From contig JAFWFL010000070.1 in assembly GCA_017515595.1 (NCBI GenBank), positions 1 through 46,499 of the forward strand: a stretch of DNA of 46,499 nt, written 5' to 3'. Shown piece after piece: positions 15,919 through 45,375 of this stretch. A program made the position numbers and the translations under genes. The notes beneath the pieces are model-generated. The model made no database searches. It saw only the letters and a list, made by a program, of their open reading frames with translations, and had not been told where the DNA came from. Numbering within the stretch: position 1 is the stretch's first letter; every line of letters begins with the position of its first letter. This stretch comes from Coriobacteriales bacterium. GTDB taxonomy: Bacteria > Actinomycetota > Coriobacteriia > Coriobacteriales > UMGS124.

Positions 15919-16061
15919 CAAAGTATATCGTGGATATGGAGTACTATCACACGTATAATAACTTGGGTAAAGTAAACAGATATTGCCGGAGTGAAAAACT
16001 TGCTATACAAAAGCCAGCGTTAAAAGAAACATTCCACAGCTGCAGAAAGAGAGGAAAAACA

Positions 16062-16342
16062 ATGATGGGAAAAGAATTGGATCCAGAAGTACTCTCCCGG
16101 ATTTCTGGTGGCTCTAGTCAGGAAATGGCCGAATTGCAGCGGTAATCCTTGCAAATCCCCGTCTTAAGCCCATTTGGGATAAATACATGGTTAAATGTGG
16201 TAATAATGAATTCGACGCCACAGCATGGACTGTAACGGAAGCGCTTGACTTGGGGTTTACGGCGAGTAGCGGTTCTAACCCGAACATTTATAATGATGAC
16301 GCTGCCCATGCAGATGTGTTAAGCTGTTTGAGAAGATATTAA
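16062..16342 (+). pseudogene. Double-glycine-leader small peptide gene with apparent -1 frameshift
   Basis: ATG 16062, preceded by GAGAGG, opens a 27-codon frame whose start MMGKELDPEVLSRISGG is a textbook double-glycine leader, the type cleaved by C39-peptidase ABC exporters. It stops at 16145. In the -1 frame, an open stretch starts at 16118 inside the leader gene and runs to TAA 16340-16342. It encodes about 74 residues beginning GNGRIAAVILANPRLKP, with two Cys and an acidic tail ending CLRRY. That frame has a stop at 16115 and no good start. Joined near 16118-16145, the product would be about 92 residues. It is either a decayed bacteriocin/RiPP-type precursor, a sequencing indel or a frameshifted gene. 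No exporter or modifying enzyme lies nearby. The remaining 15919-16061 has AT-rich promoter-like hexamers only. Confidence 0.6.
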
Positions 16343-16367
16343 TTGGTAAAAGAAAACCGGCATACCG

Positions 16368-16448
16368 GGTGATACAGAGTCGTGCTCTTTATCATGAAGC
16401 AGAGGCTATATCTCTGTCTAATGATAAAGAGCACGACTCTGTATCACC
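16368..16448. repeat. 28-bp perfect long hairpin upstream of purA
   Basis: Left arm 16368-16395 (begins GGTGATACAGAG) and right arm 16421-16448 (ends CTCTGTATCACC) are fully complementary over 28 bp. The 25-base loop contains a further CAGAG/CTCTG pairing, and CCGG-type bases flank both sides. There is no T run. It lies between the split peptide gene and purA. Confidence 0.85.
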
Positions 16449-16613
16449 AAACCCGGCGCTGTCTTTCTGACATATTAATACTCTTTGATATCCTGGTTTC
16501 TTTGGGTAAATGATGCTCAACGTGTATATTGGGTTCTATACCGTTATACTTATAGAGGAAAAGTTTCGATGAGCAAAAGAACAAGTGTTCTTTGCGTTTA
16601 AGGGAGTGTGGCT

Positions 16614-19288: not shown

Positions 19289-20017
19289 ATGGCACGTACA
19301 TCCTCAAAAACAACTAAAGAAGCAGCGTCCGGAGCACCTTCTTCTCAAGATACTCCTACGGCAGAAGAAATTGCAGCCATTTTTGCTTCTACAGAACCCC
19401 AGGCAGTAGAAGCAACCACACTTGACAGCAGCAGTCAAAAACCTTCACAAAGCAACGATGCTTCATTTGTTAATCTCGAAGAACAGATTGTCAGTAGTTC
19501 ACGCAGGTGGAGCGGGGCATTTTTAAGTGTTGACGATGTCACCGTACTGCTCCCCAACGGTAAACCGGCTTCGCGCGAGGTTGTGCGCCATCCCGGAGCC
19601 GTGGCGATTATTGCTCTTACAGATGATAATAAGCTGGTATTGGTGCACCAGTACCGCACGTCTCTTGAGCAGGTTACCATAGAGATTCCTGCGGGCAAGC
19701 TGACGCCCGGAGAAGACCCGCGCGATGCAGCACGCCGTGAACTCGAAGAAGAGACCGGCTATAAAGCTCTCGATATAGCTTATTTGGGATCCATTGCCGT
19801 TGCAGCAGGCTATAGCGACGAGATTATTCATCTTTATCTCGCCATGGGGCTTACCTTTGTAGGCGCACACCCGGATCAAGACGAATTTGTGAGTGTAGAC
19901 CTTGTAGATCTTGACGAGATGGTAAACAGAGTTCTCGATGGGCGTATTATAGATTCCAAGACAGTTATTGGCATCCTTTTGTGCAATGAAATTCTCAGAA
20001 GAATGCCGAGCGCATAA
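19289..20017 (+). CDS. NUDIX hydrolase, ADP-ribose pyrophosphatase-like
   Basis: This protein would hydrolyse a nucleoside diphosphate linked to another group, most likely ADP-ribose. The Nudix box starts at GKLTPGEDP (about 134) and ends in RRELEEETGY, with all metal-binding Glu present. ARRE and the downstream AAGYSDEIIHLY fit the ADP-ribose branch. A low-complexity Ser/Thr/Ala extension of about 65 residues precedes the domain and is unusual. The gene starts 9 bases after purD with only a weak ribosome binding site, so coupling is likely. Confidence 0.88.
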   Translation: MARTSSKTTKEAASGAPSSQDTPTAEEIAAIFASTEPQAVEATTLDSSSQKPSQSNDASFVNLEEQIVSSSRRWSGAFLSVDDVTVLLPNGKPASREVVRHPGAVAIIALTDDNKLVLVHQYRTSLEQVTIEIPAGKLTPGEDPRDAARRELEEETGYKALDIAYLGSIAVAAGYSDEIIHLYLAMGLTFVGAHPDQDEFVSVDLVDLDEMVNRVLDGRIIDSKTVIGILLCNEILRRMPSA

Positions 20018-39687: not shown

Positions 39688-39914
39688 TGTGCACAAAATC
39701 AGTCTTGTTTTGCCTACAAATTTTGAATGTGTGACCACAAGAAGGTAAATGCCTGCTCATATCTCTATGGCCGAGAAACCCTTAAAAGCGTCAAGCTTAT
39801 GACCTGCAGGATCTTCTCGGCCGGGAATTAAACTAGCAAATCAAAGCTCAGATGGAGCGCCGGATGGTCACACATTCAAAATTTGTTGGCAAAACATGGC
39901 CGTGTTTGTGCACA
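39688..39914. repeat. 50-nt imperfect inverted repeat between the MFS gene and asnS
   Basis: Arms 39688-39737 and 39865-39914 are equal in length and complementary at roughly four of five positions, perfectly so over the distal 19 bases (TGGTCACACATTCAAAATT at 39865). The 127-base centre contains an additional pair GGCCGAGAA (39769-39777)/TTCTCGGCC (39813-39821). No open frame codes a plausible protein. It fits a MITE-like element or a very long hairpin. The remaining 39915-40113 holds the asnS leader. Confidence 0.7.
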
Positions 39915-42487: not shown

Positions 42488-42516
42488 TTATGGTATGGAG
42501 CCAAAGAGTCTGTCTC

Positions 42517-42639
42517 AGTGCAAGTTGTTACGGGTGCTAGCATGAGAACAGACAAAAATCGAGGAGTTTCTCGGCAAAAGCCCAGGAAATATGATCCTTT
42601 TAGGGTTTGATCATGCTAGCGCCCGTAACAACTTGCACT
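42517..42639. repeat. 29-bp long-arm hairpin between the S component and ecfA1
   Basis: Left arm 42517-42545 (AGTGCAAGTTGTTACGGG...) and right arm 42611-42639 are complementary over 29 bases with one G-T pair, enclosing 65 bases. Parts of the left arm recur at 34572-34596 and more weakly at 41601-41620. It may moderate readthrough from the S gene into the ATPase genes, or be a mobile inverted-repeat element. Confidence 0.75.
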
Positions 42640-42643
42640 AACC

Positions 42644-45262: not shown

Positions 45263-45375
45263 GGATGAGCTCTTCAATTAAAAGAGGCCGCCATATATAA
45301 AGTTCATCGCTTTCGCCTCATAAAAACGCTCTGAACTTTATATATGGCGGCCTCTTTTAATTGAAGAGCTCATCC
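45263..45375. repeat. 44-bp perfect inverted repeat after the ECF operon
   Basis: Arms 45263-45306 (begins GGATGAGCTCTTC) and 45332-45375 are complementary over all 44 bases, enclosing a 25-base loop. This is far longer than a normal terminator stem, and no T run follows beyond CCTTATTTTCC. It follows ecfT by 21 bases. Confidence 0.9.

What the first reader, a model, noticed from the sequence alone, without database searches (positions are those of the whole stretch)
16062..16342. Split double-glycine peptide gene between dnaB and purA
A 27-codon frame with a convincing double-glycine leader (SRISGG) overlaps, in the -1 frame, an uninterrupted stretch of about 74 codons that has no start of its own. 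Joined, it makes a peptide of about 92 residues, not resembling any bacteriocin I can name. It lies in an otherwise core region, next to a long hairpin, and no exporter is nearby.
Basis: partly seen in the sequence, partly recalled or inferred. Interest (0 to 1): 0.75.

Follow-up and report, generated by a model that had tools for sequence, protein, structure and literature searches.

The report
Frameshifted orphan double-glycine peptide gene
Between two housekeeping genes of a gut-type actinobacterium sits what looks like a broken gene for a small secreted peptide, one of several such unlinked genes in a genome that has two matching export machines elsewhere; it is most likely an ordinary decayed relic or an assembly slip rather than a new mechanism.

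Summary
In detail: an RBS-equipped 27-codon ORF (16062-16145) with leader MMGKELDPEVLSRISGG overlaps, in the -1 frame, 74 open codons (16118-16339) without a good start. The leader is rare by chance (8 of 4000 shuffles). The tail is not: so long a run appears in 18% of shuffles, and its coding score is only weakly positive. The genome encodes two NHLM exporters (C39-peptidase ABC1 plus ABC2) on other contigs and at least three intact orphan GG-leader peptides (73-85 aa). One of these (contig C10) has relatives in other genera, one with an in-frame stop; all three genomes carrying them have an NHLM exporter (against 3 of 33 others). The window peptide has no homologue in any collection searched, and the two nearest relatives lack the insert between dnaB and purA. 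No slippery heptamer lies in the overlap. Best reading: a lineage-specific orphan GG-peptide precursor gene broken by a frameshift (or misassembled). The adjacent hairpin is an inverted pair of a REP-like repeat with over 20 copies in the genome, not part of the gene.

The parts
16048..16054 (+). ribosome binding site of the leader ORF (AGAGAGG)
   Evidence: read from sequence; used by the RBS-plus-leader scan
16062..16145 (+). 27-codon ORF with double-glycine leader MMGKELDPEVLSRISGG
16118..16342 (+). open -1 frame of 74 codons plus stop, probable core of the same precursor
   Evidence: probable, not shown
16118..16145 (+). overlap of the two frames, where the frame is lost; no slippery heptamer, no run of 4 or more
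15931..15959 (+). promoter-like site TGGATA-17-TATAAT, about 100 bases before the leader ORF
   Evidence: consensus match only
16368..16448 (.). long hairpin: two inverted copies of a dispersed REP-like repeat
15919..16607 (.). 689-base dnaB-purA gap; about 137 bases in G002 and about 190 in G001, without the ORF or the hairpin

Best explanation
It is an orphan precursor gene for a small secreted double-glycine (GG) peptide, present at this site in this lineage but not in its two nearest relatives, in which a frameshift just after the cleavage site has separated the leader from a core of about 70 residues. In an intact form the leader would be recognised and cut after GG by the C39 peptidase domain of an NHLM-type ABC exporter encoded elsewhere in the genome, and the core exported. 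In the assembled form the ribosome stops ten residues after GG, so the gene is probably a recent pseudogene (or carries an assembly error, a rival given below). Shown: leader, RBS, both frames, exporters in the genome, three further orphan GG peptides, absence of the insert in relatives. Inferred: that the two frames were one gene, that an NHLM exporter handles it, and that it is inactive now.
For: Leader with RBS, 8/4000 in shuffles. Tail frame opens inside the leader ORF, is best of six frames, and beats most open shuffles of itself (15 of 228 as good). Joined length about 90 aa is close to the other GG peptides of the genome: C5 73 aa, C119 82 aa, C10 85 aa. Two NHLM ABC1/ABC2 pairs, ABC1 at 917 and 938 bits against a cut-off of 853. 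The C10 peptide has relatives in other genera, 61%, 44% and 31% identity, one with an in-frame stop, so such genes do decay by point changes. All three of those genomes have an NHLM ABC1 against 3 of 33 others, p 0.003. One relative lies directly beside an NHLM ABC2 gene. Its leader MEGMKLDREALEGVSGG closely resembles MMGKELDPEVLSRISGG. The nearest relatives G001 and G002 lack both the insert and an NHLM ABC1.
Against: No homologue of the tail or joined peptide anywhere searched, so no intact version is known. Weak coding score of the tail and of the leader ORF. An open run of that length is not rare in this gap. The core shows no convincing similarity to the other GG peptides. Single-sequence fold of the tail is poor, pLDDT 46.
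Confidence: 0.6

Rival explanations
1. Assembly or sequencing error: the gene is intact in the living strain and the frameshift lies only in this draft assembly.
For: Draft genome in 134 contigs; the gene is otherwise well formed. No second genome of the species is held.
Against: The overlap has no homopolymer of 4 or more, the usual site of such errors (general knowledge); the neighbouring genes dnaB and purA are intact.
Confidence: 0.15
2. The 27-residue ORF is a complete gene: a short GG-leader signalling peptide with a ten-residue product (SSQEMAELQR), and the open -1 frame is chance or a separate small ORF from ATG 16187.
For: Own RBS and stop; short GG-exported pheromones are known in Gram-positives (general knowledge). 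The open -1 run is within chance for this gap.
Against: The other GG peptides found in this genome have cores of about 57-66 residues; no sensor or regulator gene beside it; the tail frame is best of six; ATG 16187 has a poor RBS.
Confidence: 0.15
3. No gene: leader and open frame are both chance in non-coding DNA.
For: Weak coding scores; no conservation.
Against: Leader with RBS has p about 0.002 in shuffles of this gap; the genome has matching export systems and similar orphan peptides.
Confidence: 0.07
4. Programmed -1 frameshifting makes both a short and a long product from the same gene.
For: The geometry (overlap in the -1 frame, strong hairpin downstream) superficially fits.
Against: No X XXY YYZ heptamer in the overlap; the only one, GGGAAAA at 16067, lies before the -1 frame opens. 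The hairpin is over 220 bases downstream and is a dispersed repeat.
Confidence: 0.03

Closest known systems
Orphan GG peptide of contig C10 in the same genome and its relatives in G749, G735, G744
   Same: Leader of 17-19 residues ending in GG, good RBS, 67-87 residues in all, mostly away from an exporter (G744 beside an NHLM ABC2 gene); one relative broken by a stop
   Different: Core sequence unrelated to the window tail; the C10 gene and two of the relatives are intact
Class II (unmodified) bacteriocins with double-glycine leaders (TIGR01847 and related)
   Same: Short acidic leader with an L..E.L..I.GG pattern
   Different: No model match, no immunity gene, no adjacent exporter, core not like any known bacteriocin family
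NHLP and Nif11-type precursors of NHLM export systems (Haft et al. 2010, PMC2887384)
   Same: The genome has the NHLM exporters these precursors go with, and one Nif11-type precursor at C119
   Different: Those have long leader domains (about 90 residues conserved in the paper's alignments); this leader is 17 residues and matches no NHLP or Nif11 model

Membership tests
GG-leader peptide (general class, C39-exported) | Leader of about 15-30 residues with hydrophobic spacing ending in GG, behind an RBS | tested here: met
GG-leader peptide (general class, C39-exported) | C39-peptidase ABC exporter in the genome | tested here: met
   two, on contigs C36 and C119
GG-leader peptide (general class, C39-exported) | Leader and a core of usual size in one reading frame | tested here: not met
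   frames split at 16118-16145; hence a broken or unproven member only
GG-leader peptide (general class, C39-exported) | Cleavage and export by the transporter | not testable with these tools
   needs biochemistry
Class II bacteriocin (TIGR01847, TIGR03949, Pfam bacteriocin models) | Match to a family model | tested here: not met
   no Pfam or NCBIfam match up to E 10
Class II bacteriocin (TIGR01847, TIGR03949, Pfam bacteriocin models) | Immunity gene and exporter in the cluster | tested here: not met
   the gap holds only this gene and a repeat; dnaB and purA flank it
NHLP / Nif11 leader precursors (TIGR03793, TIGR03798) | Match to the leader model | tested here: not met
   the precursor at C119 does match Nif11, 26.1 bits, below the cut-off of 32.3

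The most novel reading that the evidence does not exclude
A new lineage-specific core type in a scattered, fast-turning-over repertoire of orphan GG peptides served in trans by NHLM exporters, in which the frameshift is a strain-variable on/off state and not decay.
Probability: 0.06. Interest if true: 0.55.

Novelty: new member of a known kind. Interest (0 to 1): 0.3.

Why it matters
By itself a broken peptide gene is of small interest. The context is more useful: this genome and relatives in its order carry unlinked, unannotated GG-leader peptides that go with NHLM exporters, systems usually described with NHLP or Nif11 precursors. That makes a simple prediction to test: one NHLM exporter serves several short-leader peptides encoded far away, and the repertoire turns over by gain and point decay.

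Tried and rejected
Homologues of tail or joined peptide: 149 relatives, 396 of the phylum, 395 of the order (overlapping sets), plasmids, phages, two scans each of viral and genome contigs; the weak hits with the best scores were read and lie out of frame or inside long unrelated ORFs, i.e. chance. The own-genome hit on C84 is chance. Programmed frameshifting: no slippery site. Hairpin as an RNA family: only sub-threshold matches, mostly microRNA models, caused by the long stem. Hairpin as a mark of GG genes: C10 also has a strong hairpin after its stop, C119 and C5 have none of that kind, and such hairpins follow other genes too. Fold of the tail: no confident model, so no fold search was made. 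Viral-contig hit for a C10 relative lies in or across a glycine-rich ORF: chance. One paper search was rejected for a short term.

Full report
The observation. The 689-base gap between dnaB (ends 15918) and purA (starts 16608) holds an ORF at 16062-16145, MMGKELDPEVLSRISGGSSQEMAELQR, with the ribosome site AGAGAGG. The -1 frame is open from 16118 to 16339 and reads SGNGRIAAVILANPRLKPIWDKYMVKCGNNEFDATAWTVTEALDLGFTASSGSNPNIYNDDAAHADVLSCLRRY.

Chance. A leader with RBS, at least two acidic residues and the hydrophobic-GG pattern occurs in 8 of 4000 dinucleotide shuffles of this gap on either strand. An open + frame of 74 codons somewhere in the gap occurs in 535 of 3000 shuffles, so length alone proves nothing. 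Among shuffles of the tail that stay open, 15 of 228 have as gene-like codon use. With a periodic Markov model trained on 359 long ORFs of this genome, the tail frame scores +0.061 bits per codon, the best of its six frames, at the 7th percentile of true genes; 16% of open intergenic stretches (some of which are real small genes) and 13% of open wrong frames do as well. The tail is therefore probably, not certainly, coding. The other orphan GG peptides of the genome score 0.23-0.33.

Genome context. The genome (3.3 Mb, 134 contigs) has two C39-peptidase ABC exporters, on C36 and C119. Both are NHLM systems: ABC1 at 917 and 938 bits (cut-off 853), each followed by an ABC2, with a sigma factor and an HlyD-like N-terminus at C36 and a radical-SAM protein and Nif11-type precursor at C119. 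A scan of 766 kb of the genome for RBS-led GG leaders outside long genes found clear cases on C119 (82 aa) and C10 (85 aa) besides the window; C5 has a 73-aa one with a weaker RBS. The C119 peptide lies about 5 kb from its exporter genes; those on C5 and C10 are on contigs without a C39 match.

A conserved orphan. The C10 peptide has relatives in other genera of the order: G749 (61%, intact), G735 (44%, in-frame TAG), G744 (31%, intact, beside an NHLM ABC2 gene). Of 36 other genomes tested for NHLM ABC1, six have it by score (G018, G058, G735, G749 over the cut-off; G031 and G744 below it but far above generic ABC transporters); all three peptide carriers are among them, hypergeometric p 0.003. 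The 33 others were picked from earlier lists and not at random, and G735 and G744 share a genus, so the p-value is only a guide. G001 and G002, the nearest relatives, have no NHLM ABC1 and no such ORF between dnaB and purA, where the gap is about 190 and 137 bases.

Reading. A lineage-specific orphan GG precursor, served in trans by an NHLM exporter and broken by a frameshift after the cleavage site, fits all of this. The lack of any relative of the core means that the joined gene has not been seen intact, which is the main weakness. No slippery heptamer lies in the overlap, so programmed frameshifting is unlikely. An error in the assembly cannot be excluded without reads.

The hairpin. 16368-16448 folds at -73.8 kcal/mol within 16340-16480. 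Each arm is a diverged copy of a dispersed repeat, ATGACACGGGGTCGTGCTCTTTGTCAT; its core is found 28 times in the genome with up to 3 mismatches, 22 of these with up to 2, and the reversed control not once. It resembles REP elements. Six Y1 (REP-type) transposases are present and some have similar GGGGAC palindromes beside them, though not this very repeat. The REP assignment is an inference.

Organism. The tools give the kinship but no name; the gene content (many Tat-exported flavoproteins) suggests Coriobacteriia (own knowledge, untested).

Noticed in passing
window 16368-16448 and 28 sites in the genome (L079-L106): Dispersed palindromic repeat ATGACACGGGGTCGTGCTCTTTGTCAT, in the window as an inverted pair; REP-like.
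   Followed up: partly
window 39688-39914, 42515-42641, 45263-45375: Three further long inverted repeats (arms 42-51 bases); the first has a relative on C5, the second on C46 and C133, so several families of palindromic repeats are present in this genome.
   Followed up: partly
L121 19568-19825 (C10), L155, L156, L157: Family of 67-87-residue orphan GG peptides in several genera of the order, matching no NCBIfam model above its cut-off where tested; one copy has an in-frame stop.
   Followed up: partly
L035 5955-12640 (C119): NHLM cluster with a radical SAM/SPASM protein and a Cys-rich Nif11-type precursor; possible RiPP.
   Followed up: no
L076 3006-3227 (C5): 73-aa GG peptide directly after a copy of the dispersed repeat and before a 215-aa ORF; no exporter beside it.
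   Followed up: no
L121 about 19455-19535 (C10): Strong hairpin followed by a T-rich stretch right after the C10 peptide gene, a likely terminator.
   Followed up: partly
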